From: Marinicella sp.
Lineage (GTDB): Bacteria > Pseudomonadota > Gammaproteobacteria > Xanthomonadales > Marinicellaceae
Direction of reading: 5' to 3'
Assembly (NCBI GenBank): GCA_028284365.1
Contig: JANQRW010000053.1
Span: forward strand, 1 to 38,057
DNA: 38,057 nt
Made by a program: the position numbers and the translations under genes. The notes under the pieces were generated by a model. That model did not search any database. It saw only the letters and a list, made by a program, of their open reading frames with translations, and was not told where the DNA came from. This document shows, piece by piece, positions 17,783-32,934 of this stretch; the first letter of the stretch is position 1; each line of letters begins with the position of its first letter.

Positions 17783-17814
17783 AATTGGGTTTATTGTTTT
17801 AAATGGGCCCAATT
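17783..17814. terminator. Possible hairpin between convergent genes
   Basis: AATTGGG (17783-17789) and CCCAATT (17808-17814) can form a 7-bp stem with an 18-base loop. It lies between the stops of the large exported protein and the M23-family protein, overlapping the latter's last codons. Weak, with no clear T tract. Confidence 0.3.
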
Positions 17815-19172: not shown

Positions 19173-19317
19173 TAACGACAAACTCAAACAGTTATCTACA
19201 TAGTCTTGACAGGGTACATTCATAATAAGCAAATGACAAGGTTAGGTATATAATCAAAAATAGAAAAGTCATAACGAATTGAATCATACCAATGTTGATT
19301 AATGCAGAAATGAACAT

Positions 19318-19906: not shown

Positions 19907-20206
19907 TTATAGTATTTCAAGCTTAGAAATATAATAGTTACCGAAGGGTATTTTTTTAAAAGATGCTTGAATACTCTTGCCGCCTTCAACCTTTACCTCT
20001 AAAGAAACTGTATGGAATAAAAAAAGCACATGATGAGAAGCTGTGACTACTTCTAATTGATTTTTATTTATATCTTCTTTTTCAGAAAGGACATTAAGGG
20101 CTTCTTCAAATTGGTTTTTTTTATTAGGAACAACAGAAGCAATTCCGCATAATGCTATGAATGAACCAACCATAAAATACCACTTCCTTTTACCATCTAA
20201 TTTCAT
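19907..20206 (-). CDS. Small membrane-anchored protein, unknown
   Basis: 99 residues. A basic start (MKLDGKRKWY) leads into one hydrophobic segment (FMVGSFIALCGIASVV), an uncleaved anchor or a signal peptide. The remainder (about 70 residues) is polar with alternating beta-like stretches (VLFLFHTVSLEVKVEGG, FGNYYISKLEIL), giving a periplasmic domain. I do not recognise it. It is on the same strand as the cysteine-rich exported protein upstream, separated by a MITE-like inverted repeat, so the two may once have been neighbours in one operon. Base composition is AT-rich like the rest of this segment. Confidence 0.55.
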   Translation of the reverse strand: MKLDGKRKWYFMVGSFIALCGIASVVPNKKNQFEEALNVLSEKEDINKNQLEVVTASHHVLFLFHTVSLEVKVEGGKSIQASFKKIPFGNYYISKLEIL

Positions 20207-20252
20207 TTTTCAACCTTTAAAAATATAAAAACAATTATTTTTCAATAACTGC

Positions 20253-20360
20253 CAAACTTCTGCATAACTTGAATTCTAATGTAGAAAAATTAAAACCAGT
20301 AAAGGGGCAGTTTTCACCCTTTTTTCTAAGAATTTAGAACTGCTGTATTGCAGAAGTTTG
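20253..20360. repeat. MITE-like 108-bp element with inverted ends
   Basis: The ends are perfect 12-bp inverted repeats, CAAACTTCTGCA (20253-20264) and TGCAGAAGTTTG (20349-20360). The similarity continues imperfectly to about 27 bp, including TTCTAA in both arms at the same distance. The interior is AT-rich and non-coding. No clear target-site duplication flanks it. It may instead be a large terminator hairpin for the gene upstream on the minus strand. Confidence 0.55.
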
Positions 20361-20370
20361 ACGATACTTA

Positions 20371-21042
20371 TTATTGTTCTTCTTCAGGAAAGTCAGGGTG
20401 TCTGCCACCGTGTCCATCTATAAAATAAGGAATGCCAGTTAACCAACCATTAATCCCTGGATATAATGAAGTAGGAATAACAGAACCACCAGAATCAGGG
20501 TCAGGACAAGGTTGACAAGTACAGTTAGTGCTTCTAAAACCCAAAAAACATGTTGTTGAAACTGAACTCACTCCACATGCGCAAGTAGATCCACAATAAG
20601 CATGCTCTCCTCCTGCGGATAAAGCACAGAGACCTTGTGAAATTACAATTCCTGCTCCAATGGCACATGCCGGACATTTCGCTTGGTTATTTTCGTCAGC
20701 ATTGTCAAATACATTAATTATTCTTGGAATATCCAGTACTCCAACCACTTCTTTTTTATAACTAATTGTTGCAATTTTATCTTCAACAACATACTGATAT
20801 TCAATTCCATTAATTATCATCGGAATTTTGTTGCTTGAAATATCATAATCATTACTCAACCGTATATTTAACGAGCGATCACCTAATTCTTTTACTAATA
20901 TCGAAAAAGCATCCATTTCAAACTGTGACAAAGTGATGCTATCACCATTTGTTCCATTTAAGGTTATCAAAGCTTCATTTGTTGCAGAAATACCTTCGAA
21001 ACTAATGAATAACAATAAACATATAACTAATTTTTTAATCAT
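20371..21042 (-). CDS. Exported cysteine-rich protein, unknown
   Basis: 223 residues with a clear signal peptide (MIKKLVICLLLFISFEGISA). About residues 22-115 form a polar, beta-leaning domain. Residues about 120-185 hold ten cysteines in a compact Gly/Ala/Ser-rich zone (CPACAIGAGIVISQGLCALS, AYCGSTCACG, TTCLG-like, NCTCQPCPDPDSGG), enough for five disulfides or metal binding after export. The tail (LYPGINGWLTGIPYFIDG, then HGGRHPDFPEEEQ) is Gly/Pro-rich. I do not know the family. A small secreted toxin, bacteriocin-like factor or surface protein are all possible, with no evidence to choose. It lies in the AT-rich segment beside mobile-element remains, so horizontal arrival is likely. Confidence 0.65.
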   Translation of the reverse strand: MIKKLVICLLLFISFEGISATNEALITLNGTNGDSITLSQFEMDAFSILVKELGDRSLNIRLSNDYDISSNKIPMIINGIEYQYVVEDKIATISYKKEVVGVLDIPRIINVFDNADENNQAKCPACAIGAGIVISQGLCALSAGGEHAYCGSTCACGVSSVSTTCFLGFRSTNCTCQPCPDPDSGGSVIPTSLYPGINGWLTGIPYFIDGHGGRHPDFPEEEQ

Positions 21043-21243
21043 CTAATTCTCTTTCTTGTTAAATTATATTTGCCAACATTAATTCTGTTTGCACAAATGA
21101 ATTTTATCCAAAATAAAAATAAAATGATACATAAAAATACTTACAAAATAATAAAAAACGTACAATGAAATCTTGTAGATTAGATTTGTAATTCCTAATT
21201 TATAGTTACAATTGTATCAATAAATGTTATTTATATTATTCCG

Positions 21244-22132
21244 ATGAATTCAATACAAGCTAAACAAATTCCAATTGAGAATTTTTTAGGCAGGCTTAAC
21301 CATAAACCTGTTAAAACCTCAGGTGCTGATTTGTGGTATCACAGCCCATTAAGACAAGAGGATAAAACACCCTCATTCAAGGTCAATACTATCCTCAATA
21401 CTTGGTATGACTTTTCATATGGCGGGGGTGGCTCGATCATTGATTTACTCATGACGATGTATAACGATGACGTTTCTTGTGTTTTAAACCGTCTTTCATC
21501 AAGTTATGGTGTTGTATCACCTGTAAGACAGTTTGAGACTGCCAGAGCGCAAAAAAACCTACTGTTAGCAAACTTAAACTTGAGAGTGTTACCCATATTT
21601 TTGAGAAAGGTTTGTATGCCTTTCTGAAAGACCGTTGTATTGATGTGGATATAGCGAAGCAATACCTGAAACAAATCTATTTCACCATCACAGGTAGTGA
21701 TAACAAGTGCTTTGCACTGACTGTGGAAAATGATGTGGGGGGTATGAGTTTACTAATGGTCTAAAAATGAAAGGCTATATAGGAAATAAAGCCATAACTA
21801 CTATTAAGAACGACCAAAATAAAAATGTTGCTGTATTCGAGGGTATGATGGGCTTTTTGAGTTTTTTAACCCATCAGAACATCACAGATTTTCAAAGTTC
21901 TGCCATCATCATGAACTCTGTCGCCATGAAAAGCGAAACACTCAAAGCTATCCAATCAGATGAGTTTGAGAAAGTTTATTTGTTCCTAGATAACGATAAC
22001 GCTGGTGATGATGCTAAAACGTTTTTTACCGATGGGCTTGATCTTGAGATGGTTGATAAATCAGGAATTCATTCAGATTTTAAAGACTACAATGACTTTT
22101 GGATAAGTCGGGCAAACAAAATTGAAAAATAA
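21244..22132 (+). pseudogene. Frameshifted CHC2/Toprim primase of Bacteroidota mobile-element type
   Basis: Three reading frames join into one protein. Frame 1 (from 21244) gives the primase N-terminal region, SPLRQEDKTPSFKVN then TWYDFSYGGGGSIIDL, where aromatic residues stand in place of the zinc-binding cysteines. A shift near the A7 run at 21551-21557 opens SVTHIFEKGLYAFLKDR and onward. A second shift at the G6 run near 21737-21742 restores YEFTNGLKMKGYIGNKAITT, then VAVFEGMMGFLSFL and VYLFLDNDNAGDDAKTFF, the Toprim core with its Glu and DxDxAG acidic residues. The motif order and wording are those of toprim-domain proteins in Bacteroidota integrative elements (family recollection). The gene is inactive as written unless the shifts are sequencing errors or are read through. 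Confidence 0.75.
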
Positions 22133-22147
22133 AATAGGAGAAGAAAA

Positions 22148-23011
22148 TTGGATTTAGAAAGTATCTTTAAAACATTCGCTCAAGAAATTACTGCCATACA
22201 ACAGCAAAAATCAAACCATCAGAGGTTGGCAAAACAGTCCTTCGAGCAAACAAACAGAACCATAGAACAGATTAAGGAATCCGAGGGAAAAATTGATGAT
22301 TTTACTTCTGCTGAAAGCATGTCCTTTCTTGATGTCAATGGTGAGCGTAAATTTTATGGGCACAGCACCCAAACCTTTGAAGACTTGAAATAAAATCAAA
22401 TCCATTTGTATAAGCTCCAGTTACAATGGTTGCTGGTAAATGCCTACGAGTACTTTGAAATATATCTGAAAAATCTATATGCATTATGTTGGAACAATGA
22501 AAACATTTGGAGGTTGAAACATATTGGCTCATTAACTCGTCAAGAAGCGAATGAGCTTAGTATTGAAAGAATAAAAGAACTGGCGTTTAAAGTTGAGCCT
22601 AACGAAATTTTAAATATTTTCAGGAACAAAATTCCAAATATTTCATCATTTGAAACTAATAATAAAATGGAAGTTGACCTTAAATTTTTTATCAAAGTTA
22701 TTGAAAAAATCAGGCATATTGTTGTTCACAACAATGGCTATATAAAGAACATGGATAAGTTTCAAGAAAAAGTATTTAAGGAACTGGGTTATGCGCAGAA
22801 TTCTGACAAAGCAAAAGAACTAACCGGCAGTTTTTTATTATTGGTTGATGAAGGTCATTTCATTGACCTCAGAAAGTTAGTTGATAAAGAACATGACTTC
22901 TTGCCTATCGAATACTGTAGATTTAGCATATTGATTGAAAAAATGATGTGTTATGCAGACCTGTTGAGAATGGAAGTTAAGAATTACCTTAAACAGAATA
23001 AAATATTGTGA
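22148..23011 (+). pseudogene. HEPN-type (Rx4H) gene interrupted by one in-frame stop
   Basis: A TTG start (22148) has a good AGGAG site seven bases upstream. The frame runs 81 codons (helical, FKTFAQEITAIQQQK...FYGHSTQTFEDLK), meets a TAA at 22391-22393, and continues open in the same frame to 23011. Reading across the stop gives FEDLK-stop-NQIHLYKLQLQWLLV, with continuous helix character, so one protein of about 287 residues seems ancestral. The second part has KIRHIVVHNNGY: R and H five residues apart, followed by Asn, the Rx4H catalytic signature of HEPN ribonucleases used in toxin-antitoxin and phage-defence systems. Alternatively the distal part is translated alone from TTG 22406. It follows the primase remnant by 15 bases, as if in one operon. 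Confidence 0.6.
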
Positions 23012-23261
23012 TTTTGACTGTTATGTGTAAATGATACAACGTATAAGCTTTTGGCAAACAGGTTTGTATACAAAAGATTGTAGTTGAGTTTGGTGCTGTG
23101 TTTTTTCCTGTAGCTTAAAAATTCACTTAAAACTTACACATTGTCAATTCTGTGTTCTCTCATGTTCTTTTGATAGGTGTTGATACGTCGTTGTTCCTAC
23201 TAAGTTTTCTGATTGTTATAACTTGTTTTTAGAAGTTTTTGAACTGATTTGAAACTGTAAA

Positions 23262-23281
23262 ATGGTGCCAGGAGAGGACTT
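23262..23281. repeat. Distal att core (copy of the tRNA-Leu 3' end)
   Basis: ATGGTGCCAGGAGAGGACTT repeats the sequence at 31427-31447 (ATGGTGCC, one extra C, then AGGAGAGGACTT) in direct orientation. In tRNA terms it copies the acceptor arm and half of the T arm plus the CCA end. Confidence 0.85.
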
Positions 23282-23338
23282 TTGGTGCTTTGTAAATTAT
23301 TGATATTAAATTGATTAATACAATACCTGTGTTTTTGT

Positions 23339-23357
23339 GCCAACAATTGTACCAACA
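23339..23357. other. Integrase arm-type sites, distal end
   Basis: TGCCAACAATTGTACCAACA holds two direct copies of T(G/A)CCAACA 11 bases apart. The block TGCCAACAATTGTACCA recurs with one mismatch at 31295-31311 beside the integrase. Such paired arm sites flank tyrosine-recombinase att cores. Confidence 0.65.
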
Positions 23358-23463
23358 TAAATGCAAAGTGATGCTCTTTTTTATGGGTTTTAGAACTTGG
23401 GTTGTTGATAGATATTATCGAATAATTAGTTAATAACGATAAAGAAATAATTGTAATCCATAT

Positions 23464-24570
23464 CTATTCATTACTTTCAGCAATATGAAGCAATTCACTA
23501 AATGCAAAAATAGCTGGTCTTCTACCTGCTGATTCTTGAACAGTTGTTATTACGCCTGATTCGCAAAGTTTATTTACAATACCATTTCCTGTGGGTCTGC
23601 CAAAATCTGCATATCGACATAATTCTGGTGCTGTAAATATTGGTTTATTGAAAATGAAGTCTAATGCAAGCATTGCGTATTGTGAATGAGTTGCTTCGTG
23701 AATGTCTCTTTTTGTTTCCTCATACAAGGCAACGATTTTTTGCCCTTTGTTTGTGTTTACTTCTGCTTGTGACTTTATTGCATTTAAAAAGAAAATTAAC
23801 CATTCGACCCATTGATTTTGCTCTGAAATCATTTGGAGCCTGTGATAGTACTCCTCTCGATTTCTTTCTAAGTATTGAGATATATAAAACATTGGAGCAT
23901 TGATGGCTTTTTTAAAATATAAGAATAATGGAATTAGTAGACGACCAATTCTTCCGTTGCCATCCAAAAATGGGTGTAAAAGTTCAAATTGGGCATGTAT
24001 TATCCCTGCCTGTATAAGCACATCTATATCATCAAATTGGATATATTCTTCAAATTTATTCAAATGATCTTGCAACTGTAATGGTGACGGTGGAATAAAA
24101 GTCGCATCTTCAATTTTACAGCCTTTGGGGCCTATCCAGTTTTGAGTTTTCCTAAACTTACCTGGTGCTTTATTTTGCCCTCTTACACTTTCAAGTAGTA
24201 TTTTATGTATCGAGAGCAATAAGCTCTTGTTTAATGGTCTATCCTTGATGTGTTCTTGAGCTTTTAATAGTGCCAGTCTGTAGTTTTGGATTTCTTGAAT
24301 ATCTTCGTTCTTCTGTTGGTCAAATCTCTTGCCTGATTCGTGTTTCAAAACTTCTTGTAAAGTTGCTTGAGTGCCTTCTATTTTAGAAGATAATACAGCC
24401 TCTTGATTTGCTAATGGTGAGAGTAACACAATAGGGTTAATCATTGAGATCATAATGCCATCAAATCTTGCCAGAGATGAATTTGCTTTTCCTAAAATAT
24501 GTGTCAGTTCTCCTGTCTGAAGGTTCTTAAGTGGTAATTCGCTTGGTATATAAGGTATTTTAGACATCAT
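23464..24570 (-). CDS. Fic-family protein with N-terminal autoinhibitory motif
   Basis: 368 residues. The Fic core HPFLDGNGRIGR is at 199-210, complete with the catalytic His, the phosphate-binding GNG and the final Arg, so AMP (or another nucleotide) transfer from NTP is expected. Upstream, S61-S-K-I-E65-G66 fits the (S/T)xxxE(G/N) inhibitory helix; placed before the Fic core it makes this a class II Fic. The first 50 residues match the Fic_N domain; residues about 300-360 form a winged helix (FTAPELCRYADFGRPTGNGI) able to bind DNA. This layout is common in bacterial Fic proteins, often in mobile DNA, with roles in toxin-antitoxin-like or regulatory control; no antitoxin partner is adjacent. 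It is the last gene of the island, bordered upstream by the 46-bp repeat array. Confidence 0.92.
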   Translation of the reverse strand: MMSKIPYIPSELPLKNLQTGELTHILGKANSSLARFDGIMISMINPIVLLSPLANQEAVLSSKIEGTQATLQEVLKHESGKRFDQQKNEDIQEIQNYRLALLKAQEHIKDRPLNKSLLLSIHKILLESVRGQNKAPGKFRKTQNWIGPKGCKIEDATFIPPSPLQLQDHLNKFEEYIQFDDIDVLIQAGIIHAQFELLHPFLDGNGRIGRLLIPLFLYFKKAINAPMFYISQYLERNREEYYHRLQMISEQNQWVEWLIFFLNAIKSQAEVNTNKGQKIVALYEETKRDIHEATHSQYAMLALDFIFNKPIFTAPELCRYADFGRPTGNGIVNKLCESGVITTVQESAGRRPAIFAFSELLHIAESNE

Positions 24571-24687
24571 GCTTTACTTTTGTAACGGAACATTTGTGTT
24601 TCATATTTTTGAATAAGTTTAACACAAATAAATTTGTGTTTATTTAGCTATACACAAATATTTATTAAACAAAGCAAATAAAAATGG

Positions 24688-24915
24688 TGAAAAGAGGTTT
24701 TCTAGCACGTTAGAAAACAATTTTCGGACACTATAAAAAGAGTTATTGCGTATGTTAGATAATCAGTTTTCCGACACCGTAAAAGGAGTTTTTACATACG
24801 TTAGTGATGAATTTCTTGCGACTGTAAAAAGGGAATTTTCCCACGCTATAAAAAAGGTTTTGCAGTATGTTAGATATTGAATTTATCGGCACTGTAAAAA
24901 GAGCATCACTGAGTT
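24688..24915. repeat. Degenerate 46-bp tandem repeat array
   Basis: Units start at about 24688, 24733, 24779, 24824, 24848 and 24894, giving spacings 45, 46, 45, 24 and 46. Each begins (G/A)TAAAA(A/G)G(A/G)G, goes through a T run, then CACGTTAG, TATGTTAG or ATACGTTAG, an AT-rich stretch and ends C(G)GACAC(T/C). The fourth unit is cut short and the sixth partial. The units differ at many positions yet keep the anchor boxes, suggesting binding-site constraint. It is non-coding and lies between the Fic gene and its upstream neighbour. Confidence 0.85.
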
Positions 24916-25254
24916 TCTTAAGTCCTTAAAAAAAGGAAGCTCTAAACAATTTCTGTTTAATAAGTTTCATGCACATTAGTGTGAATTTCTGAACCAATAC
25001 GCGCGTACGCGTACATATGCAAAAACTCTGACCTTCTCGTACATGAGTAATAATTCAAATGGTCACATATTAGAAATTTAAGTGAACCAAAAATTAGCAT
25101 GTACGTCCTGTCCGTTCCCCTAAGGGAGGGGGATGAGACGTACACGCATCGTTTTATGGCTCAAACGTAGGCATGGCGGCGTTTTGGCCGTTTATCTTGG
25201 TAATGTCTAACAAATCAGGGTTATTGTTCTTATAGTGCTGAGTAAATATAACAT
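24916..25254. other. Gene-free structured segment with nested palindromes
   Basis: No gene supported. It holds the alternating palindrome CGCGTACGCG (within about 25000-25016), two further CGTACA-type motifs, and a nested hairpin: outer stem TGTACGTC (25100-25107) with GACGTACA (25137-25144), inner stem CCCCT (25117-25121) with AGGGG (25127-25131). In an island of about 36% GC this GC-rich folded block is conspicuous and may be an origin, a packaging site or a structured RNA. Confidence 0.6.
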
Positions 25255-26169
25255 TCAATCAAACATATTACTTTGTATTTTTTTATGCTTTAACTGGTGT
25301 ACCTTCACAACTTTGTAAGAACTATTTCTAAATACAGGTGAACCTTTGTCTTTGGATTGCAATATATCAATATCGCATATCAAAACATCTCCAGCTGAAA
25401 AAGCAAGTAATCCTTCGGTGACTTGGTTTAAAAAAGCTTCATCGGCAATTTCTACACTAATTCTGAAGCCGTCATAGTACATACTCCATCGATTGTTGTC
25501 AGCAAATACAATTTTAAAAACTATTAACTCTACATTTTTTTTTGATTGAACTCTTGATTCTTGCTCATCACTAAATGCTTCATCTATTCTTTTTTGGCTA
25601 AAGTCATTGAAATCCTCCTTAGCCATTTCAAAAATTGTTTCACCATCAGTATCAACTAAACTTAGTCCATCCACATTTGAATCATTCCCAATTGGTTTAA
25701 CAGTCTTAGATGCTTCTTCTTTAATCTTGCCGTTTTCAGAGACCATGTTATAGATATGGGTATTTACAGTAATTTTGGTTTTGCCTTTGAAAACAGTGGT
25801 AGTGTTATTTTTTTCTTTGTGTATAACGTTACTTGGTTTTTCACCCTTTAAAAATTTTATCAACTCAAAGATAGAAACGATAGCACCTGCAAAGCCACCA
25901 ATTCCAATTAGTACACCTTTACCCCAATCGAGAATATCTTTGGCTGGTTCAATCTGGTCTAGCATTAGCTCAATAGGGAAGCTACCTGGGGGTAAGGCTT
26001 TGACTTTTATGTTAAGTTTGCTGTCCGGGTAAATACAGCTGTTTACTTCCCTAATCAATTCTGCAAAGTGCAACTGGCTAACAAATAAAGTATCAATGTC
26101 AATATATTCCAGATCCCCTTCATATTTAAAGATTAATTTTTCTTGATAGCTGTTGTCCCTTTGTGTCAT
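25255..26169 (-). CDS. Orphan protein with one central membrane segment
   Basis: 304 residues. The N-terminal part (about 1-85) is a mixed alpha/beta domain ending in KVKALPPGSFPIELML, a phrase resembling the GSF-I/V-hydrophobic stretch of uncharacterised island proteins. One hydrophobic segment follows (about 100-122, GVLIGIGGFAGAIVSIFELI). The C-terminal 180 residues are polar, with a beta-rich part (ELIVFKIVFADNNRWSMYYD, then FRISVEIADEAFL) and a short SH3-like end (YKVVKVHQL). I do not know its function. N-terminal sensor, membrane segment and C-terminal domain is a plan also seen in anti-phage membrane effectors, but that is only an analogy. It precedes the repeat array and Fic gene in the cargo end of the island. 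Confidence 0.72.
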   Translation of the reverse strand: MTQRDNSYQEKLIFKYEGDLEYIDIDTLFVSQLHFAELIREVNSCIYPDSKLNIKVKALPPGSFPIELMLDQIEPAKDILDWGKGVLIGIGGFAGAIVSIFELIKFLKGEKPSNVIHKEKNNTTTVFKGKTKITVNTHIYNMVSENGKIKEEASKTVKPIGNDSNVDGLSLVDTDGETIFEMAKEDFNDFSQKRIDEAFSDEQESRVQSKKNVELIVFKIVFADNNRWSMYYDGFRISVEIADEAFLNQVTEGLLAFSAGDVLICDIDILQSKDKGSPVFRNSSYKVVKVHQLKHKKIQSNMFD

Positions 26170-26198
26170 AAATTTTTTCCCATTATAAAAACGATTGA

Positions 26199-26474
26199 TT
26201 AATGTTCTGTCTTTTCACAAATCCGTGTGTTTCCCCAGCCCTCTCTAAATTCACAATTCAAGCCACACTCATAGTCACCAACTGATTGAAGATTGTTGTT
26301 GTATAGATAAGTAACAGCTTCATCCCTGCAATTTTCAAGCGAATCAAACACACCAAGAATTTTATATTCAGAAAGATCGCTTTTGTCTTCATATACTATG
26401 GCTTCCCATCGGTCATTTTTGCATGATGATAAAAACGATGCCATTGCCAATATAGTAAAGAATTGTATTTTCAT
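26199..26474 (-). CDS. Small lipoprotein, unknown
   Basis: 91 residues. The start is a lipoprotein signal, MKIQFFTILAMASFLSSC, with the lipobox LSSC giving a lipidated cysteine at position 18. The next residue is Lys rather than Asp, so outer-membrane sorting is possible. The mature part of about 74 residues is acidic, contains further cysteines (NCRDEAV, ECGLNCEFREGW, RICEKTEH) and aromatic residues, and looks like a small disulfide-bonded domain. I do not recognise the family. It sits in the island between the terminase-like gene and the membrane orphan. Some phages and satellites carry small lipoproteins that block superinfection, which is one possible role. Confidence 0.68.
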   Translation of the reverse strand: MKIQFFTILAMASFLSSCKNDRWEAIVYEDKSDLSEYKILGVFDSLENCRDEAVTYLYNNNLQSVGDYECGLNCEFREGWGNTRICEKTEH

Positions 26475-26547
26475 ATTAAATTAAACTCCATTTTTGTTGT
26501 TTTTAATTGTACAGTAAAAATTTGGAACACAGTAGGTGTTAATATAG

Positions 26548-26964
26548 TTACTTCAATCTATTTGATAATTCTTTAAGAGCATCATCTGACATTTGCTTGA
26601 TCTCGCTTGTTTTAAGGAAGTGGGTATTTAGTTTAACCACTTTAAGAGGTTCGACTGTTTCTATTTTCTGTTTGTCTGAATAACCAAAGTTGTGAAGCAT
26701 CAGCTTTGTAATTGATGCGTTAAACTCACCAGTAAGTCCTTTGTTAAGCAAGGTTAAATGCTGTTGATCTTTGATTCGCTCTAACGTGTCCGAAAACTCA
26801 TGCTTATCATCGTCATGTTTCCATGATGATATGGTGCTTTTGGCTATGCCTAAAACACTTGATAAACCAACTATCGAGGGGAAAAGGTGATTATGCTTTT
26901 CATAGTTAGCCAAGTAGTCTTTGGCTTTAACTAAAACTTCATCATTGTATTTTGTTGGTCTCAT
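26548..26964 (-). CDS. Small-terminase-like DNA-packaging protein
   Basis: 138 residues. It opens MRPTKYNDEVLVKAKDYLAN, has a helix-turn-helix region (about 30-52, SIVGLSSVLGIAKSTISSWK), then EFSDTLERIKDQQHLTLLNK, GLTGEFNASITKLMLHNFGY and SDKQKIE. This order, particularly GL-x-GEFN-x-x-I-x-K-L-M-L-x-x-x-GYSDK, is that of small terminase subunits/Gp3-like DNA-packaging proteins of tailed phages. TerS recognises the pac or cos site and recruits the large subunit. There is no large subunit or any other morphogenesis gene here, so this TerS could steer a helper phage's packaging motor to the island DNA, as in PICIs. The last 35 residues are variable. A role as a plain DNA-binding regulator is the alternative. 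Confidence 0.78.
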   Translation of the reverse strand: MRPTKYNDEVLVKAKDYLANYEKHNHLFPSIVGLSSVLGIAKSTISSWKHDDDKHEFSDTLERIKDQQHLTLLNKGLTGEFNASITKLMLHNFGYSDKQKIETVEPLKVVKLNTHFLKTSEIKQMSDDALKELSNRLK

Positions 26965-27212
26965 AATAATCTCACTTTGTTGTTTTTGAAGTGGCGGCGC
27001 AAATTAATAAACTTGTATTAATCTGCCACCGCCACCAGTGCGTACTTACGTCTATACAAATATCTGCCTACACTGTTAATCAAAGGCAAATCTCACTGTC
27101 ATTGCATACCCTTTGAAACTGTTGATACACAAGGTTTAGAATGAGTTTTAAGGTTCTTGTTCTTTTACTTGTCTTTATACTTATCCTTATCATTTATTTA
27201 AATGTGAAAATT

Positions 27213-27668
27213 TTAAAAATCAACCTTGCTCACTTTCGAGTAAATTAACTGCTCAGGGTGTAAATCACCGTTACTATTTTTTAAAACCTCAGTGGTAGTG
27301 ATTCGATATATGCCATTTAATTTTGATAGTGCTAATCTGTCAGGTCTCGGTTTTGGTTCGTGTGGTAATAAACGACAATACCATTCCATTAACTTGCCAC
27401 GAGGTTTAGCTACAAAGCCGCCTCTTTCGCGGGTTTTTCCTTTGTGGCGTTTGATGGAAAAGAATGCTGGTACATGTAAACCATTAAACGCACCTGATTC
27501 TATGATGCTAAATATCCATACCAGTTGTTTATCTTGTGCCTGGAATGTTACCCAGGTTTCCATCACAGCATCATATTGACCGTTTGGTACTCTGACATCC
27601 CAGCCGTTATATTTAAACTTCTTGGGCAATCCTGCAAAGTCATTATTTAAACTTACAATGTTACTCAT
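27213..27668 (-). CDS. Conserved-looking island protein, unknown
   Basis: 151 residues from ATG 27668, chosen because AAGGTGA lies just before it; an in-frame ATG at 27683 would add five residues. Its start overlaps the stop of the winged-helix gene by eight bases (ATGAGTAA), so they are coupled. The protein is soluble, with FKYNGWDVRVPNGQYDAV near the start, then WIFSIIESGAFNGLHVPAFF, a basic stretch KRHKGKTRERGGFVAKPRGK, and RLDRL/S-type text (RPDRLALSKLNGIYRITTTE). The alternating strands and basic loops suggest an OB-like or nucleic-acid-binding fold. I recall similar unnamed proteins in integrative elements near replication genes, but I cannot name a family. It could be the island's replication or DNA-processing factor; this is untested. 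Confidence 0.68.
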   Translation of the reverse strand: MSNIVSLNNDFAGLPKKFKYNGWDVRVPNGQYDAVMETWVTFQAQDKQLVWIFSIIESGAFNGLHVPAFFSIKRHKGKTRERGGFVAKPRGKLMEWYCRLLPHEPKPRPDRLALSKLNGIYRITTTEVLKNSNGDLHPEQLIYSKVSKVDF

Positions 27669-27972
27669 TTGAATCACCTTCATACCCTTTGTACCAATAC
27701 GTGGCTAGGCCGTTCCTGTTCCAGTCTTGGGTTTTCTCGATGATGTGACCAGCTTCTTTTAATTCGCTGATGCGTTTTGCGCCGGAATAATAGCCCATAT
27801 TCCGCATTTGCTCAGAACTAATGTGACCGTCACGTTTTAGTACACCTAAAATCGTCTCACGTTGGCTTACACGGCTTTTCATGCGCTGTTTGACCTGTTT
27901 GCCAGTGGGCGGTGGATTATTCGGTGGGTTGCTGTTAAAATTGCTCATAGATGAGCTTTCAGTAATTGACAT
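27661..27972 (-). CDS. Winged-helix protein, HTH_39-like
   Basis: 103 residues, with a strong AGGAGA site before ATG 27972. The first 35 residues are disordered (NSNPPNNPPPTGK). The rest is a compact winged helix: RETILGVLKRDGHISSEQMR, then NMGYYSGAKRISELKEAGHI and IEKTQDWNRNGLATYWYKG. The helix pattern QR..IL..L...G.IS...., ...AKRI.EL...GH.I matches the small helix-turn-helix family found in phages and islands (HTH_39-type). Likely role: DNA binding in control of the downstream genes or excision. It is separated from alpA by a hairpin and overlaps the next gene by eight bases. Confidence 0.75.
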   Translation of the reverse strand: MSITESSSMSNFNSNPPNNPPPTGKQVKQRMKSRVSQRETILGVLKRDGHISSEQMRNMGYYSGAKRISELKEAGHIIEKTQDWNRNGLATYWYKGYEGDSNE

Positions 27973-28015
27973 TATTATTGTCTCCTATCGTTAAGGATTA
28001 TTGGAATGCAACTCA

Positions 28016-28053
28016 AAACCCGTGCTGATCTCGCCAAAGAATGACACGGGTTT
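28016..28053 (-). terminator. Hairpin between alpA and the winged-helix gene
   Basis: A perfect 9-bp stem, AAACCCGTG (28016-28024) and CACGGGTTT (28045-28053), with a 20-base loop and four T's after it on the minus strand. It lies about 35 bases past the alpA stop and may end or attenuate that transcript. Confidence 0.55.
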
Positions 28054-28088
28054 CTTATTGCCTGGTTCAAATTGAATGGAAAGTATCA

Positions 28089-28283
28089 TCATGCGGTACG
28101 CTCCATTTTTCTTTGATTGATAAAGTCCTCGATTTCGGACTGTGGAAAGCCAACTGAACGGCCACCTAACTTAATGGGCGGGTTTAGCTTGTTTGATTTG
28201 GTTAAACGCCAAAGTGTGGCTGGTGAAATAGACAGTAATTCACATACTGCTTTAGGTCTTAGTAGTTGCAGTTCGTCCTGCAT
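28089..28283 (-). CDS. AlpA-family excision/regulatory protein
   Basis: 64 residues with a GAGGA site before ATG. It is a single MerR-like winged helix: LRPKAVCELLSISPATLWRL, then TKSNKLNPPIKLGGRSVGFP and QSEIEDFINQR. The order (helix-turn-helix, the wing PPIKLGGRSVGF, then W/F-x-x-x-E-I-x-x-F/W) is that of AlpA/Vis proteins, which activate the integrase gene or act as excisionase in P4-like elements and are master activators in Gram-negative PICIs. The integrase is some 1.7 kb upstream on the same strand; AlpA control of it is inferred from the family. A hairpin follows the gene. Confidence 0.92.
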   Translation of the reverse strand: MQDELQLLRPKAVCELLSISPATLWRLTKSNKLNPPIKLGGRSVGFPQSEIEDFINQRKMERTA

Positions 28284-28386
28284 AATCTGATCCTCATAAT
28301 TTCAAGATAATGCAGATTATTGCAGTAAATATTTTAAGCTTCAGGGGGAATCTAGTTTGATTTTTGAATATTCCCCCGATACGGAA

Positions 28387-29292
28387 TTAAATACCTAATG
28401 TGTCAACTATATATTTGTTATTAATATCATCTAAGTCTTTTCTTTGACCATAAACAAAATTTAGAGTTGCTCTGAAGAAATTAATAGTTTCTACTCGTGA
28501 AATTACTGAGAATCCTGGAAAGCAAGTATTAAAGCTACTGAATAACTTCCGGCAGAAATAATGTATATCCTTAGTCGATTTGGAAGGTTTTTTAATTAAT
28601 TTGCCTTGTTTGATTAAATCATCCAAGTACTTAGAAATTAAATGCAGCTGTAAATCTGCTTGTGGAAGTGTAATACTCAAAATTTTTTTCAAGTTCCTCT
28701 CTGCAACTTCATCAGGAGAATTTTCAGGTTTGCCATATATTCCCTCAATGCTTAACCTCAATACTCTTAGGCTATGAAATTTTCCTACACTACAAATGCT
28801 GTCTATAAAATTACTTGTTGCTCCATAGATATTCTGGGAAGTAGATAGTTTATTTAATAGCCTAGATGTTTCTTTGCATGATTCACTTATTTTTATTATG
28901 TCATGCTGAGTTAATATATCTTCGCTTATGAATATTGATTCTTGTAAAATAGAAGATACTTCGCCTAAGTACCATTTGCTTTTTGAATCATATTGTCGGA
29001 ATAATCCATTTTTGTGGCTATTAAAATCAACCTCTCTAATTGACTCTAAAGTGTCCCAAATGTACTTTAAGTCTGTGTGGTCAGTAGGCCAGTAATATAG
29101 GTACTGAGCTAATGCATAACCTAAAACGTCGTTATGGTAATTGTGAAATTTAGAATCATTTAAATTTGTTATTTTTAATAGGTGTTCATAATAAGTAAGC
29201 TTAGTTATATCTTCAATTGGTGTGCCGCTATTAAGTAGGTTGGCAAACTTAATGACTTCATCAGGCGTGAAGTTGTTTGGTGTTGGTTCCAT
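28387..29292 (-). CDS. Island protein of unknown function, all-helical
   Basis: 301 residues, soluble, with no signal peptide or membrane segment. GGGTGATG upstream can serve as ribosome site. It is predominantly helical and polar, rich in Leu, Ser, Asn and Lys (YEHLLKITNLNDSKFHNYHN, LRVLRLSIEGIYG, LPQADLQLHLISKYLDDLI). I see no catalytic motif and do not recognise a family. AT-rich codon use is more marked than for its neighbours, suggesting a separately acquired cargo gene. It lies between alpA and the small paired genes, a place where satellites often carry anti-phage genes; that is the only reason to consider such a role. Confidence 0.65.
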   Translation of the reverse strand: MEPTPNNFTPDEVIKFANLLNSGTPIEDITKLTYYEHLLKITNLNDSKFHNYHNDVLGYALAQYLYYWPTDHTDLKYIWDTLESIREVDFNSHKNGLFRQYDSKSKWYLGEVSSILQESIFISEDILTQHDIIKISESCKETSRLLNKLSTSQNIYGATSNFIDSICSVGKFHSLRVLRLSIEGIYGKPENSPDEVAERNLKKILSITLPQADLQLHLISKYLDDLIKQGKLIKKPSKSTKDIHYFCRKLFSSFNTCFPGFSVISRVETINFFRATLNFVYGQRKDLDDINNKYIVDTLGI

Positions 29293-29331
29293 ATTTCATC
29301 ACCCTTTCCCGTGATCTCTTTCAAAAAGGAA

Positions 29332-29386
29332 CCATGTGAAAGCCGTGAAAGTATCGGCCTTATCGGGTGCGCTCCCTATCACATGG
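29332..29386. promoter_or_regulatory. Inverted repeat upstream of the helical orphan
   Basis: CCATGTGA (29332-29339) and TCACATGG (29379-29386) are perfect 8-bp inverted arms 39 bases apart, in the gap before the 301-residue gene. The arm sequence CCATGT also occurs in the hairpin after the integrase (29963-29998). It may be an operator pair or part of a terminator for the gene upstream. Confidence 0.4.
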
Positions 29387-29400
29387 CTGTTGCTCTATGA

Positions 29401-29667
29401 TTATACCTTGAGTTTTTCTGCTATTTCACGCTCATACCTTTCTCTGTTGATTTCATAGTCAAGTGCATGTAATACACACTCATGAACCCAAAATAGACCA
29501 GTTAGTGTGTCGTCATTCACGTAATTTATTCTATTGGAATCATTTTTTTCTTCAAAGAAAGCATGTTGCATAAAGCGCAAGATACCATATGCCTTATTTA
29601 CCGGATCATCAATCAATGGATTGCTGTTGGGTAATGCTTCGACATCAATCTGCTTTGCTTTGTTCAT
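29401..29667 (-). CDS. Small helical island protein (pair member 2)
   Basis: 88 residues. Its ATG overlaps the upstream gene's stop by four bases and is preceded by GGAGATG, so translation is coupled. After a short lead, LPNSNPLIDDPVNKAYGILR begins a helical body (FMQHAFFEE, LFWVHECVLHALDYEINRER). The upstream protein has the same NPLI phrase followed by a helix of similar length ending with paired Ala/Leu residues, so the two are likely distant paralogues. Such paired small genes beside the integrase are common in islands and prophages, and are usually unnamed. I offer no function. Confidence 0.65.
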   Translation of the reverse strand: MNKAKQIDVEALPNSNPLIDDPVNKAYGILRFMQHAFFEEKNDSNRINYVNDDTLTGLFWVHECVLHALDYEINRERYEREIAEKLKV

Positions 29668-29924
29668 TGTTCATCTCCTTTGGTATCATCCGCTCTTATC
29701 ATGGCAAGTCTATGTTGCGCATAGCGAAGTGCGCCTGTTGCACAGAGGCTTATCCTTAGACGGGCTGAATCTGAAATACAATATTCACGATCATGTTCAT
29801 TAACCAGTGAAAGGTACGATAGTATGTCAGTTGCCCAGCCAATGGTTTCTTCAATGGAAAAAAGCGAATCACCATTAATCAATGGATTTCTGTCTGATGG
29901 TATTGTCTTTTGAGAATTAATCAT
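29664..29924 (-). CDS. Small helical island protein (pair member 1)
   Basis: 86 residues. It begins MINSQKTIPSDRNPLINGDS, then SIEETIGWATDILSYLSLVN, and a helix with RLRISLCATGALRYAQHRLA. The layout resembles small Pseudomonas-type proteins with an 'ALxxAxxLL...' helix, but I cannot name the family. It lies just downstream of the integrase terminator-like hairpin and forms an operon with the next gene (ATGA overlap). Its own promoter should lie in the short gap containing that hairpin. Confidence 0.65.
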   Translation of the reverse strand: MINSQKTIPSDRNPLINGDSLFSIEETIGWATDILSYLSLVNEHDREYCISDSARLRISLCATGALRYAQHRLAMIRADDTKGDEQ

Positions 29925-29962
29925 TTCTATATTTCCTATTTAAAAGTTAATTGAACAAACGG

Positions 29963-29998
29963 CCACCATGTAAGACTTGTGCACGGTTTACATGGTGG
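29963..29998 (-). terminator. Hairpin directly after the integrase gene
   Basis: A perfect 11-bp stem, CCACCATGTAA (29963-29973) and TTACATGGTGG (29988-29998), with a 14-base loop, starts 10 bases past the integrase stop. The following T tract is weak (TTTGTT), so termination may be partial. Confidence 0.6.
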
Positions 29999-30007
29999 TG
30001 TTTGTGC

Positions 30008-31222
30008 TCAATCAGCTGATTGTTTGTTGCGGTTGATTGGGATGATGTTTTTGCCATCAGCGTTATCAACCAGGTCTGCCCAGAGCTGCATCATTTTGAT
30101 GCGCTCGGCCAGATATTCTGCTTTGTTGTATGTTCCTGCTATCACGTTTTTGTTTTCGTGGCTGAGTTGTTTTTCTATGTGTCTTGGGTCAAAGCCACAT
30201 TCGTGTAAAGTCGTACTGGCAAGATGGCGAAAGCCGTGTGTGGTCATTCGGTGTTTCCATCCAAGGGCGTAAAGCGCATTGATCAGGGCGTTGCTGTTCA
30301 TGGGCTTTTGATCTGGCTCCACATTACTGGCAAAAACGTACTTGTAATGGCCTGTGATGGGCTGTAAGGCTTTCAGTATGGCTATGGCTTGAGTTGACAA
30401 AGGTACGATGTGATCACGCTTCATTTTCATGATTTCGGCTGGTATATGCCAAAGCGCATTTTCAAAGTCTATGTGCTGCCATTCTGCAAATCTGATTTCT
30501 TGGGTTCGTTGAAACGTCAGTAGGGCGATTTTAAGTCCTGCCTTGACCGTTGGTGTCAGGTTGCCCAATTCAATCGACTGTACAAGCTCTGGTAAGTCCT
30601 GATAGCTGATATGGTTGTGATTTTCTGCAATGTGCTTTCTGAATTTTAGTGCAAGGGTAGGATTGTTGTCAGTCATCCCCTCACTGATCGCATAGTTAAA
30701 AACGGCGCTACACCGTTGTTTGACTTTTTTCAGTAGTTCGGTTGCGCCGCGTTTTTCCATCTGTTTCAAGACTTCCTTGATCTCTGGTGCTGAAATGTCT
30801 TTGATGTCTTTGTGACCAAAGTAAGGAAATACATTCATTTCAAGGGTGCGCCAGACTTTTAATTCATGGTTACGTGACCATTCTTTGTTTTCCACGCTTT
30901 CATTGCGCCACAGTCGAGCAATGTTTTTAAAGTTAAATTTGTCGTCTCGTTTTTCTTTGGTTTGTCTCTTTGCGGCTGATGGGTCAATGCCTTGGGCAAT
31001 CAATGTTTTGGCTTCCATCGTCTGATCTCGGGCTTCTGCCAGGCTGATCATCGGGTACACACCCAAAGCCAAGGTTTTCTGTTTGCCCTCAAAACGATAA
31101 AACAACCGCCAATACTTTGAACCATTTGGATGTATGACCAGATTCAAGCCTCTACCATCACTGACCTTGTATTGTTTGTCTTTTGGCTTGAGGGCTTTGA
31201 TCTGTGTGTTGTTCAGTTTCAT
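30008..31222 (-). CDS. int: P4-family tyrosine integrase
   Basis: 404 residues, full length. The N-terminal arm-binding DUF4102 domain is about 1-85 (LNNTQIKALKPKDKQYKVSD, LALGVYPMISLAEARD), followed by a core-binding SAM-like domain (about 95-185) and the catalytic domain. Catalytic residues visible: R239 (TFQRTQEIRFAEW), H329 and R332 (THGFRHLAS), H355 (KQLSH), and Y365 (AGTYNKAEYLAERI). The set is complete, so the enzyme should be active. It sits next to the tRNA-Leu 3' end, transcribed away from it, with arm-type repeats in the 208-base gap. It catalyses recombination between the att site in the tRNA gene and the element's att site; excision would need a directionality factor, for which AlpA is the candidate. 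Confidence 0.96.
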   Translation of the reverse strand: MKLNNTQIKALKPKDKQYKVSDGRGLNLVIHPNGSKYWRLFYRFEGKQKTLALGVYPMISLAEARDQTMEAKTLIAQGIDPSAAKRQTKEKRDDKFNFKNIARLWRNESVENKEWSRNHELKVWRTLEMNVFPYFGHKDIKDISAPEIKEVLKQMEKRGATELLKKVKQRCSAVFNYAISEGMTDNNPTLALKFRKHIAENHNHISYQDLPELVQSIELGNLTPTVKAGLKIALLTFQRTQEIRFAEWQHIDFENALWHIPAEIMKMKRDHIVPLSTQAIAILKALQPITGHYKYVFASNVEPDQKPMNSNALINALYALGWKHRMTTHGFRHLASTTLHECGFDPRHIEKQLSHENKNVIAGTYNKAEYLAERIKMMQLWADLVDNADGKNIIPINRNKQSAD

Positions 31223-31251
31223 GGTTCACTCGTGATGATCACATTTTCATT

Positions 31252-31311
31252 TGTTGGTATGTACCAACATGGAATTTTGCAACAATGGCTATAATGCCAA
31301 CAAATGTACCA
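31252..31311. other. Integrase arm-type sites beside int
   Basis: A palindrome TGTTGGTA-TG-TACCAACA (31252-31269) and, further on, TGCCAACAAATGTACCA (31295-31311), which differs by one base from the block at the far end (23339-23355). The repeated unit is T(G/A)CCAACA. The sites overlap the likely int promoter, so integrase may repress its own gene. Confidence 0.65.
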
Positions 31312-31426
31312 TCATCTGTGATGCGTTGTAAAGAGGGCTTATGAAACCTTATGAAGCTGATAAGTTAGCTATATGGTGATTTTAAATGGGCAAATGGTGC
31401 TTAATGAAATCTTCTGAATATTGAAG

Positions 31427-31447
31427 ATGGTGCCCAGGAGAGGACTT
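31427..31447. repeat. Proximal att core in the tRNA-Leu 3' end
   Basis: ATGGTGCCCAGGAGAGGACTT covers the encoded CCA, the acceptor strand and part of the T arm of the tRNA gene on the minus strand. It recurs at 23262-23281 minus one C. The tRNA is intact, so integration restored it. Confidence 0.85.
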
Positions 31448-31514
31448 GAACCTCCACGGCCTTGCGGCCACCAGCACCTGAAGCTGGCGTGTCTACCAAT
31501 TCCACCACCTGGGC
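31428..31514 (-). tRNA. tRNA-Leu (anticodon CAG), with encoded CCA
   Basis: Acceptor stem GCCCAGG pairs with CCTGGGC, with discriminator A and an encoded CCA. The D arm contains GGTAGACAC-type Leu sequence; the anticodon stem-loop is CCAGC-TTCAGGT-GCTGG with anticodon CAG. A long variable arm (TGGCCGCAAGGCC region) and T loop GGTTCAAGTCC follow, all features of a class II leucine tRNA. Without CCA it spans 31431-31514. It is the integration site of the island to its left. Confidence 0.96.
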
Positions 31515-31604: not shown

Positions 31605-32351
31605 TCAGGGGCTTTCGTGTGGCCACAGCTTCATCATGGCGTGAATCATGCGTTTGGCGGGTTTGACCCAAACCGGGTTGATGTTTTCTGGGTAATGTTC
31701 AGATAAATCCAATTGAGACTCATGTTCAAGAATCAGCCAATCCAACAAAGGATGTCCTTGTCCAGCAAATTCCCAGTCGATGATGGTCAGTTGTTTGTTG
31801 CCCAACAAGTTGTTCAGGTTCAAGTCAGAATGATATAGGGTGTTGTTGGCTTTCCAAAAGCCGAGAAAATCAAGTTTCTGGATGGTTTCGAGTAGTTCAA
31901 TGGTGGCCTTTTCTGGAATCTTCTTGATGTTTTTAAGGTACAGTTTTAAACGATGGTCTAATCTGCTGGGTAGGTATTCATAGTTGATGGCATGGTATTG
32001 TTGCATGCTGTTTTCTAGCGCAGCCAGTTTAACCGGGTTTTTTAAATCTGATTTTTGCCAAACAGGTTGATCGATGAATTCGGTGATTAAGTAGCCAGCT
32101 TTGGGATTGTTCTCAATCACATTGGGTCCAATCCTTAAGGGTTGTAGTTTATCCAGAATGCGTTGTTCCTCAAATCGGCAGATACCCATTGCAGCACGGT
32201 TAAAGCGGACTATCCAAATTCCAGCATCAGTCAATACTTTAAAAATATGGTTACTGGTACCGGAGTCCAGCGGTTGCCACTCAAGGAGTCCAGCATGGTT
32301 GATGGTATTGATTGATTTAAGCTTGTTGTACCAGTCTGTTTTGCTTGGCAT
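31605..32351 (-). CDS. Thiamine-kinase-like phosphotransferase
   Basis: 248 residues of the choline/aminoglycoside-kinase fold. Kinase marks: LYHSDLNLNNLLG (catalytic loop HxDxxxxN) and LTIIDWEFAGQGHPLLDW (the DxE/D metal-binding motif). The N-lobe is short, with GTSNHIFKV acting as nucleotide loop and WIVRFNRAA carrying the usual lysine-equivalent strand. ThiK-type enzymes phosphorylate thiamine to thiamine monophosphate. Its place at the end of the TPP-riboswitch operon argues for thiamine rather than choline. The start overlaps the pnuT-like gene by 35 bases, with GGAGT as ribosome site. Thiamine monophosphate would still need ThiL to reach TPP; alternatively the enzyme could pyrophosphorylate, but it does not resemble thiamine pyrophosphokinase. 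Confidence 0.82.
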   Translation of the reverse strand: MPSKTDWYNKLKSINTINHAGLLEWQPLDSGTSNHIFKVLTDAGIWIVRFNRAAMGICRFEEQRILDKLQPLRIGPNVIENNPKAGYLITEFIDQPVWQKSDLKNPVKLAALENSMQQYHAINYEYLPSRLDHRLKLYLKNIKKIPEKATIELLETIQKLDFLGFWKANNTLYHSDLNLNNLLGNKQLTIIDWEFAGQGHPLLDWLILEHESQLDLSEHYPENINPVWVKPAKRMIHAMMKLWPHESP

Positions 32352-32934
32352 ATTGCTGACTCCAGTTAATGTAGCCTATGATGGTAAGAATTACATATAA
32401 CACAAACATGGCTGCGGTTAAAAAAAGTTCTTTATGCGTAAAAATATATACCGATGTTATGTTAATCACCAGCCAGTAATGCCAGTTTTGTAGTACTTTA
32501 TGTGCCACCATTGCGGTTGCGAGGACTGCAAAACAGGTGGTGAAAGCATCCAGGTAGGGCATGGATGCACCCAAATGCTGCATACCATAGCCTAGTACTG
32601 GAACCAGTAAACCAGTCAGCAGGATTAAGATGCTGTGTTTTTGCAATGACCAACTGATGATTTGGCGTGGCTGATTGTGTCTGCCTTGGCGCCATTGATA
32701 CCAGCCATAGATAGCCATGACTAAATAGTAAATATTGAGTAAAGATTCTGATAACAATGATACCTTGTGAAACAAATAAATGTAGATGGCGGTGCTGATA
32801 AATGCAAACAGCCAACACCATATGTTTTCACGGATTGCTAAAACCAGATAGGCAATCGCGGTTACCACTGCCAGTACTTCAAGTGGTTGTTGTGCTTGCC
32901 AGGCTGTAACGATTTGTTGCCAGATGTCAGCCAT
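32317..32934 (-). CDS. pnuT: PnuC-family transporter, probably thiamine (PnuT)
   Basis: 205 residues with seven or so membrane segments, the PnuC size. Marks: LEVLAVVTAIAYLVLAIREN, then WCWLFAFISTAIYIYLFHKV, LSESLLNIYYLVMAIYGWYQ and WRQG, which are the PnuC signature. PnuC proteins carry vitamins by facilitated diffusion with trapping by phosphorylation: nicotinamide riboside for PnuC, thiamine for PnuT, riboflavin for PnuX. The TPP riboswitch upstream and the kinase downstream assign this one to thiamine. Its start shares a base with the preceding stop (TAATG), so translation is coupled. The C-terminal residues overlap the kinase start. Confidence 0.88.
   Translation of the reverse strand: MADIWQQIVTAWQAQQPLEVLAVVTAIAYLVLAIRENIWCWLFAFISTAIYIYLFHKVSLLSESLLNIYYLVMAIYGWYQWRQGRHNQPRQIISWSLQKHSILILLTGLLVPVLGYGMQHLGASMPYLDAFTTCFAVLATAMVAHKVLQNWHYWLVINITSVYIFTHKELFLTAAMFVLYVILTIIGYINWSQQYAKQNRLVQQA

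What the first reader, a model, noticed from the sequence alone, without database searches (positions are those of the whole stretch)
23262..31430. PICI-like satellite with a lone terminase small subunit in a new tRNA-Leu site
The island has intact int, AlpA and a TerS-like gene, but no large terminase, capsid or tail gene, in about 8.2 kb bounded by duplicated tRNA-Leu ends. In Gram-positive PICIs, and a few Gram-negative ones, TerS redirects a helper phage's packaging motor. Here no known pri-rep gene is seen, so either the orphan gene at 27213 or the decayed primase to the left once supplied replication. If functional, this is a satellite lineage in a poorly studied marine group, with Fic and membrane-protein cargo.
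Basis: partly seen in the sequence, partly recalled or inferred. Interest (0 to 1): 0.72.

Follow-up and report, generated by a model that had tools for sequence, protein, structure and literature searches.

The report
Phage-satellite islands with swappable packaging gene
This 8-kb island in a marine bacterium belongs to a group of small mobile elements that share an integrase and a DNA-binding protein but carry very different versions of the phage gene that selects DNA for packaging, as expected of parasites that ride in different phages.

Summary
An 8.17-kb, low-GC island sits at the 3' end of tRNA-Leu(CAG), bounded by 20- and 19-nt repeats. It carries an integrase, AlpA and a true lone TerS (PF16677, E 2e-23); no TerL or capsid gene was found. 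Five relatives have the neighbouring genes with the site empty.

Best reading: small satellites that choose a helper's packaging motor through an exchangeable TerS. Mobility, helper and packaging are untested. PICI or PICMI membership is not met (no primase/rep found). The primase remnant to the left lies outside the att sites.

The parts
31428..31514 (-). tRNA-Leu(CAG); its 3' end (31428-31447) is the int-proximal attachment copy
   Evidence: ARAGORN; Rfam tRNA; repeats
23263..23281 (+). distal attachment copy, identical to the tRNA 3' end but for one missing base
30008..31222 (-). tyrosine integrase (404 aa)
   Evidence: PHROG 1 3.7e-67, NF007246 4e-84 but under its cut-off; 84.5% identical to the integrase of G011 C35 (L022); dN/dS 0.056 with dS 1.83
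29664..29924 (-). small ORF, 86 aa, unknown
   Evidence: no family
29401..29667 (-). small ORF, 88 aa, unknown
   Evidence: only weak hits, below cut-off: PF16286 0.0028, PHROG 31987 0.023
29318..29386 (-). int-alpA RNA (Rfam RF02996)
   Evidence: 35.8 bits, equal to the gathering score; at or above gathering in 6 of 16 further loci
28387..29292 (-). variable gene between int and alpA, 301 aa, unknown
   Evidence: none; one weak PHROG hit E 0.053; no BLAST relative at this place in the other islands mapped
28089..28283 (-). AlpA-like activator/excisionase (64 aa)
   Evidence: PF05930 7.7e-10, PF12728 4e-10
27661..27972 (-). winged-HTH protein (103 aa)
   Evidence: PF14090 4.2e-5, above its cut-off; 88% identical in L006
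27213..27683 (-). hallmark SSB-like OB-fold protein (156 aa)
26978..27099 (-). structured leader between the SSB-like gene and TerS (model R1)
   Evidence: 31 pairs, 92.2% of cells paired against at most 50% when slid, 6 pairs with a change on both sides; fold z-scores of five copies -0.85 to -3.68, window -3.49 (folded as DNA); search hits
26548..26964 (-). terminase small subunit (TerS, PF16677 family)
   Evidence: PF16677 2e-23; PHROG 309 3.2e-8, 606 2e-7, 2538 0.0011, all TerS; dN/dS 0.10-0.25 over three pairs
26199..26474 (-). 91-aa ORF; its start reads like a lipoprotein signal (by eye)
   Evidence: no family above cut-off
25255..26169 (-). LAPAL-family / PDC-S42 protein (304 aa), cargo
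   Evidence: NF053583 5.7e-53; PADLOC PDC-S42 3e-35; PHROG 3243 4.7e-37
23464..24570 (-). Fic protein of the SoFic type (368 aa), cargo
   Evidence: PF02661 1.3e-20; PADLOC SoFic 2.1e-111; NF046030 only 170 bits against a cut-off of 550

Best explanation
A small phage satellite, one of a lineage in Marinicella and a sister genus. Shown: integrase plus tRNA-end repeats, and an empty site in relatives; AlpA plus int-alpA RNA; a conserved gene whose model is an SSB-like OB fold; a covarying structured leader; then a TerS gene without any TerL. Shown across relatives: the TerS belongs to one of three sequence families and differs between sister islands that share a tRNA site. Inferred: when a helper phage infects, AlpA switches on int and excision; the circle is replicated with the SSB-like protein and host or helper enzymes; the island TerS binds a site on the island and hands it to the helper's TerL, so that island DNA fills helper heads, probably as a headful concatemer because 8.17 kb is far below a phage head; defence-type cargo (SoFic, PDC-S42) favours the host. 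Exchange of TerS would let a lineage use a different helper motor.
For: TerS profile; no TerL in any of 24 island loci by profile or tblastn, whereas TerL is adjacent in 8 of 8 phage-context loci (L123 and L124 look like near-copies). All five PF16677 genes in 33 family genomes lie in integrase-bearing islands or, for G004, at a contig end. SSB-like profile in 15 of 33 family genomes, 18 places, against 5 of 369 class genomes, one of them the window's own. TerS directly downstream in 8 of 18 family places, a ninth split over two contigs of G004. Sister pairs with different TerS: W/L022 100/99, L025/L026 100/99, L027/L028 92/99; their TerS share 29% over 65 residues, nothing, and nothing meaningful. 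Similarity ends at the module start in W/L022. Purifying selection on TerS. Att repeats above shuffles for 8 of 10 TerS islands tested, 5.0-9.2 kb: W, L006, L008, L025-L029. Empty site. PADLOC hits in both large cargo proteins of the window and in 6 of 10 proteins scanned from other islands, one weak. Prophage-like contig with TerS 58% identical to that of L022 plus TerL and portal.
Against: No excision, replication, helper or particle was observed. No primase or rep gene was found. 9 of 18 places with the SSB-like gene have no TerS, so TerS is not essential to the lineage. AlpA was recognised in only 4 of the 8 complete TerS islands with an SSB-like gene (W, L006, L028, L029). The own genome has no TerL match by three models (PF03354, PF04466, PHROG 2), so no resident helper is known. 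No relative of the SSB-like gene in viral contigs (a pattern-limited search) or phage records, so the island has not been seen in particles. TerS could act as an interference protein instead. One cargo protein bears the name 'putative phage structural protein' in NCBIfam. Att repeats were not found for L022 and L023.
Confidence: 0.72

Rival explanations
1. The TerS is a weapon rather than a packaging gene: it sabotages packaging of an infecting phage by competing for TerL, so the island is a mobile defence island.
For: Cargo is defence-like in several islands; 9 of 18 places with the SSB-like gene lack TerS; in a decayed island of G003 the leader stands before an ATPase-like gene (function read by eye).
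Against: TerS sits at one fixed place after the conserved core in the TerS islands with an SSB-like gene, apart from variable cargo; TerS-directed packaging is the established role in SaPIs (PMC6092414, passages). Interference and packaging are compatible.
Confidence: 0.15
2. A decayed prophage that kept only integrase, AlpA and TerS.
For: Lone phage genes can survive decay; an older decayed remnant lies next to it (19.2-23.3 kb).
Against: Integrase, SSB-like gene and TerS recur in this order in 8 loci at five tRNA genes; genes compared are under purifying selection; TerS differs while the neighbours stay.
Confidence: 0.05
3. An ordinary integrative element spread by some other route, with the TerS-like proteins serving as DNA-binding regulators.
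For: No helper or particle seen; weak HTH hits beside the TerS matches; islands without TerS persist.
Against: Three TerS families fill the same slot; a regulator role would not predict exchange among packaging families. No conjugation gene appeared among the 11 window island proteins, 10 scanned per library.
Confidence: 0.08

Closest known systems
Phage-inducible chromosomal islands (PICIs; SaPIs and Gram-negative PICIs; PMC6092414, passages seen)
   Same: Integrase, AlpA in Gram-negative members, sometimes a terS homolog that directs packaging, accessory cargo
   Different: No primase/rep module found; an SSB-like OB-fold gene and structured leader instead; 5-9 kb; TerS of three families among close relatives; main genes all on one strand; no helper known
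PICMIs of Vibrionaceae (PMC10803314; outline, abstract and sections 7 and 10 read)
   Same: Marine gammaproteobacterial hosts; 6.7 kb on average; int, a gene of many families between int and alpA, alpA; no capsid-remodelling gene; protection from phages
   Different: PICMIs require prim, sit at fis, and no terS homolog was found in PICMI115; these islands sit at tRNA or tmRNA genes, no prim was found, and many carry terS
int-alpA RNA (Rfam RF02996)
   Same: Window match at 29318-29386 between int and alpA
   Different: The RNA alone does not define the element; the phrase 'int-alpA RNA' is in no paper of the library
PrgE of plasmid pCF10 (8s4t)
   Same: Best structural match of the hallmark model, solved with DNA

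Membership tests
Terminase small subunit, PF16677 (GP3_package) | Whole-protein score above the curated cut-off | tested here: met
   82.9 bits against 29.4, profile 1-105/105
PICI | Site-specific integrase and att repeats | tested here: met
PICI | AlpA activator (Gram-negative members) | tested here: met
   PF05930 7.7e-10 in the window; recognised in 4 of 8 complete TerS islands
PICI | Replication module with primase (pri) and rep | tested here: not met
   No primase or rep among the 11 island proteins (10 scanned per library); an undescribed Rep, such as the 301-aa protein, is not excluded
PICI | Two divergent gene blocks around a repressor (layout described in the introduction of PMC6092414) | tested here: not met
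   All 11 chosen genes lie on the minus strand and no repressor gene was named
PICI | Induction and packaging by a helper phage | not testable with these tools
   needs infection experiments
PICMI | prim gene together with int and alpA | tested here: not met
   no primase found in the island
PICMI | Integration next to fis | tested here: not met
   tRNA-Leu(CAG) 3' end
PICMI | No terS homolog (stated for PICMI115) | tested here: not met
   TerS present
ssDNA-binding proteins (SSB, PrgE) | OB fold | tested here: met
ssDNA-binding proteins (SSB, PrgE) | Sequence homology to a known SSB family | tested here: inconclusive
   PHROG 7778 in 4 of 13 members, best 8.2e-5, not the window's; none by Pfam or PDB sequences
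int-alpA RNA RF02996 | Score at or above gathering | tested here: met
   35.8 against 35.8 bits, borderline; up to 50.5 in relatives

The most novel reading that the evidence does not exclude
A separate family of minimal phage satellites, defined by an OB-fold SSB-like protein and a structured leader, in which the leader is a fixed docking point after which complete TerS modules of different families are exchanged, so that one island lineage moves between helper phages with different packaging motors and replicates without its own primase.
Probability: 0.45. Interest if true: 0.78.

Novelty: new variant of a known kind. Interest (0 to 1): 0.64.

Why it matters
How satellites change helpers is an open question. 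Here sister islands keep the integrase, tRNA target, SSB-like gene and leader but differ in the one gene expected to choose the helper's motor, which makes helper switching directly testable. It also points to satellites in Marinicella: the search for 'Marinicella' with 'prophage' listed two papers, neither about its phages by title. The hallmark gene gives a handle for finding more. The replication route without a recognisable primase is unexplained.

Tried and rejected
Third att copy left of 23262, which would join the primase remnant to the island: none above shuffles. Primase pieces as part of the island: they lie outside the repeats; searched apart, their best primase-named hits are E 9e-6 and 0.082. 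The leader as a TerS-specific pac site: unlikely, because it is 86% identical over 257 bases in L022, which has a different TerS family. The leader as an intrinsic terminator: no T run follows the hairpin (read from the sequence). Helper prophage in the own genome: none by PF03354, PF04466 or PHROG 2; PHROG 2 matched 22 of 33 family genomes, but most matches are weak and the same search rings in 11 of 14 controls, so they were not counted as helpers; the three strongest are G032 C125 and two in G018, of which only G032 was followed. Relatives of the SSB-like gene in viral contigs and phage records: none. TerS of L022 in viral contigs: none. PDB sequence matches for the TerS alignment: best E 0.29. 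The mir-71 and mir-2513 hits are below gathering and were dismissed. Att search failed for L022 and L023 and was not above shuffles for L030.

Limits: the TerS clade has 85/92 support and L027/L028 92/99; dS exceeds 1 in most pairs and reaches 3.2, so dN/dS values are rough. The G004 island is inferred from two contig ends (L023, L007), not joined. Covariation rests on five leader sequences counted on the alignment from which the structure was derived; one of its measures (further pair types, 109 of 500 shuffles) is not above chance. Fold z-scores are weak in L006 (-0.85) and L007 (-1.66). The best PHROG of the window TerS is 309, as for L022, so these two are distant relatives.
Full report
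What is there. The window holds a tRNA-Leu(CAG) gene at 31428-31514 on the minus strand. Its last 20 bases recur at 23263-23281 with one base missing, above shuffled sequence (16.5 against a maximum of 12 in 30 shuffles; 18.5 against 13 in 10). Between them lie 8166 bp at 36.7% GC against 44.2% outside. The main genes all lie on the minus strand, in this order from the tRNA: integrase, two small ORFs, a 301-aa unknown, AlpA, a winged-HTH protein, a 156-aa protein, TerS, a 91-aa ORF, a LAPAL/PDC-S42 protein and a SoFic-type Fic. The TerS call is firm: PF16677, E 2e-23, full profile length.

Empty site. Of 16 tRNA-Leu(CAG) loci fetched from other genomes of the genus, one is the island of G011 C35 and five (G003, G004, G005, G007, G008) show the peptidase-like gene (name recalled) of window 17799-18713 within about 150-580 bp of the tRNA, with the genes of window 31605-32934 on the other side; in the other ten that gene was not seen in the stretch fetched. 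In G003 even the small gene at window 18957-19172 is kept and ends about 20 bp from the tRNA. So the inserted DNA is about 19,180-31,428: the island plus a 4-kb remnant with pieces of a primase. No third repeat was found.

A family of islands. The orphan at 27213 is the key. As a single protein it was found in 11 of 61 genomes, own included; as a 13-member profile in 15 of 33 genomes of the family at 18 places, and in 5 of 369 genomes across the class, one of them the window's own. It has no relative in 50,697 phage records. The usual order is tRNA or tmRNA, integrase, variable gene, often AlpA, small DNA-binding gene, the hallmark, then TerS or cargo. AlpA was recognised in 4 of the 8 complete TerS islands with the hallmark (window, L006, L028, L029), and the integrases of L025 and L026 match the family profile only weakly (3e-10 and 3e-9). 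Of the 18 family places, 8 have a TerS gene downstream on the same strand: the window, G011 C11, G011 C35, G014, G027, G032 C425, G029 and G031; small ORFs lie between in some. In a ninth, G004, contig C2 ends about 190 bases after the hallmark gene and C1 begins with the leader and TerS; that join is inferred. The other 9 places have none. A further TerS island at the tmRNA (G003 C18) lacks the hallmark, and a 3.9-kb contig of G013 carries a TerS with island cargo. Sizes by repeats are 5.0-9.2 kb for the 8 of 10 TerS islands where repeats were found.

TerS of three families in one slot. The window, L006, L007 and L028 carry PF16677 TerS; L022, L025 and L029 carry PHROG 309 TerS (L022 5.8e-46 and L025 8.2e-43; L029 by profile); L026 and L027 carry PHROG 83 TerS (9.3e-19 and 3.7e-21; PF05119 0.0016, below cut-off, for L026). 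The first two are distant relatives: the window TerS has PHROG 309 as its best PHROG (3.2e-8) and shares 29% over 65 residues with that of L022, while L022 scores only 12.7 bits with PF16677, cut-off 29.4. In the tree of the hallmark gene the TerS islands fall in one group of ten (85/92; nine with TerS, counting G004). Its three sister pairs share the tRNA but differ in TerS family: window/L022 at tRNA-Leu(CAG), L025/L026 at tRNA-Phe, L027/L028 at tRNA-Arg; for the last two pairs BLASTP finds no meaningful similarity between the TerS. The four labels together need at least 6 changes on the tree. Window and L022 are 84-85% identical in integrase and hallmark protein. Their DNA similarity runs through the intergenic leader and stops 7 bases past the next start codon in both (window 26957, L022 9845); in L022 an 89-aa gene comes before TerS. 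In L025/L026 it stops about 4 bases past a start codon in both, that of TerS in L025 and of a 15-codon ORF in L026, whose TerS module begins about 190 bp further on. In L027/L028 it stops 55 bases into a small shared ORF before the TerS module. TerS is under purifying selection (dN/dS 0.10-0.25 for PF16677, 0.15 for PHROG 309).

Lone TerS against phage TerS. A TerL profile and tblastn with seven TerL proteins found nothing in 24 island loci. All eight phage-context TerS loci examined have TerL directly downstream: 2 of the 63 phage records that match, five viral contigs, two of them near-copies, and a prophage-like contig of a genome of the sister genus, G032 C125. That contig has a PHROG 309 TerS 58% identical to that of L022, then TerL, portal and head genes, so phages with this packaging type do occur in the bacterial family. 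The window's own genome gave no TerL match with three models, so a helper would come from outside or use another TerL.

Non-coding elements. Rfam's int-alpA RNA lies at 29318-29386, at the gathering score, and in 6 of 16 further loci. Between hallmark and TerS lies a structured leader. In five islands 92.2% of cells pair against at most 50% when partners are slid, with changes on both sides in 6 of 31 pairs; G-U pairs suggest that it acts as RNA (inference). The model finds the syntenic sites in L025 and L026 as weak hits (E 0.006 and 0.026; the next, elsewhere, are 0.2 and up) and one further copy in G003, before an ATPase-like gene in what looks like a decayed island. L027 and L028 have a hairpin and a similar A-rich tail at the same place. 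Since the leader is shared by islands with different TerS families, it is more likely a control region or a replication signal than a TerS-specific pac site (inference).

How it most likely works. Excision by Int with AlpA; replication with the SSB-like protein; TerS directing the helper's TerL to island DNA; packaging in helper heads, probably as concatemers (inferred from size, as reported for PICMI115 in PMC10803314, section 7); cargo that protects the host. None of these steps was observed. PICI-like function is the best reading; membership fails on the primase/rep module and the divergent layout (PMC6092414, passages), and PICMI membership fails on prim, site and terS (PMC10803314, sections 7 and 10).

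Literature. Eight searches of the open library were made: satellites with terS, AlpA and PICMI, terS and marine (25 of 87 listed), SSB and tRNA, Marinicella with prophage, modular exchange, int-alpA RNA (the latter 6 of 218 listed), and SoFic with phage satellite. No listed paper describes, by title or start of abstract, this lineage or TerS exchange among sister satellites. Unlisted papers, subscription journals and preprints are not covered. Pac- and cos-type packaging in satellites is already known (PMC6092414 passages), so diversity of packaging modules as such is not new. Passages of PMC12595487 were also seen: tmRNA-site islands of Pseudomonas with intY and alpA, moved by a jumbo phage; the word 'terminase' does not occur in its main text.

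Noticed in passing
window 19180-23262: Low-GC remnant between the empty-site boundary and the distal att copy: pieces of a primase (21244-21627, 21767-22132), a PHROG 35492 protein (22406-23011) and a secreted-looking protein (20371-21042, by eye); probably an older element at the same tRNA.
   Followed up: partly
window 26978-27099; model R1: Structured, covarying leader with a long hairpin and a CTTC(C)AAAAA tail between the SSB-like gene and the TerS module; may be an undescribed regulatory RNA or replication signal.
   Followed up: partly
window 23263 and loci L006, L029, L061: In four islands the distal att copy lacks exactly one G next to the same CACC motif of the tRNA 3' end.
   Followed up: no
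L059-L063, L031, L032: A second branch of the SSB-like family (100/100) has no TerS; L031, L032, L059 and L060 carry a pair of small genes that looks like HigBA toxin-antitoxin (name recalled) nearby.
   Followed up: no
G000 C8 3072-3197 (L120, near tRNA-Phe): Short TerS-like fragment (PHROG 309, E 1.6e-6, 66-aa frame) elsewhere in the window's own genome, perhaps a dead island.
   Followed up: no
L119 (G032 C125): Prophage-like or phage contig with primase, TerS, TerL, portal and head genes in a genome of the sister genus: a possible helper type for PHROG 309 islands.
   Followed up: partly
L008 (G003 C18) and L030 (G017 C12): tmRNA-site islands with defence cargo: type IIG restriction enzyme plus PDC-S50 (L008, with lone TerS), Dsr1 in two frames (L030).
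   Followed up: no
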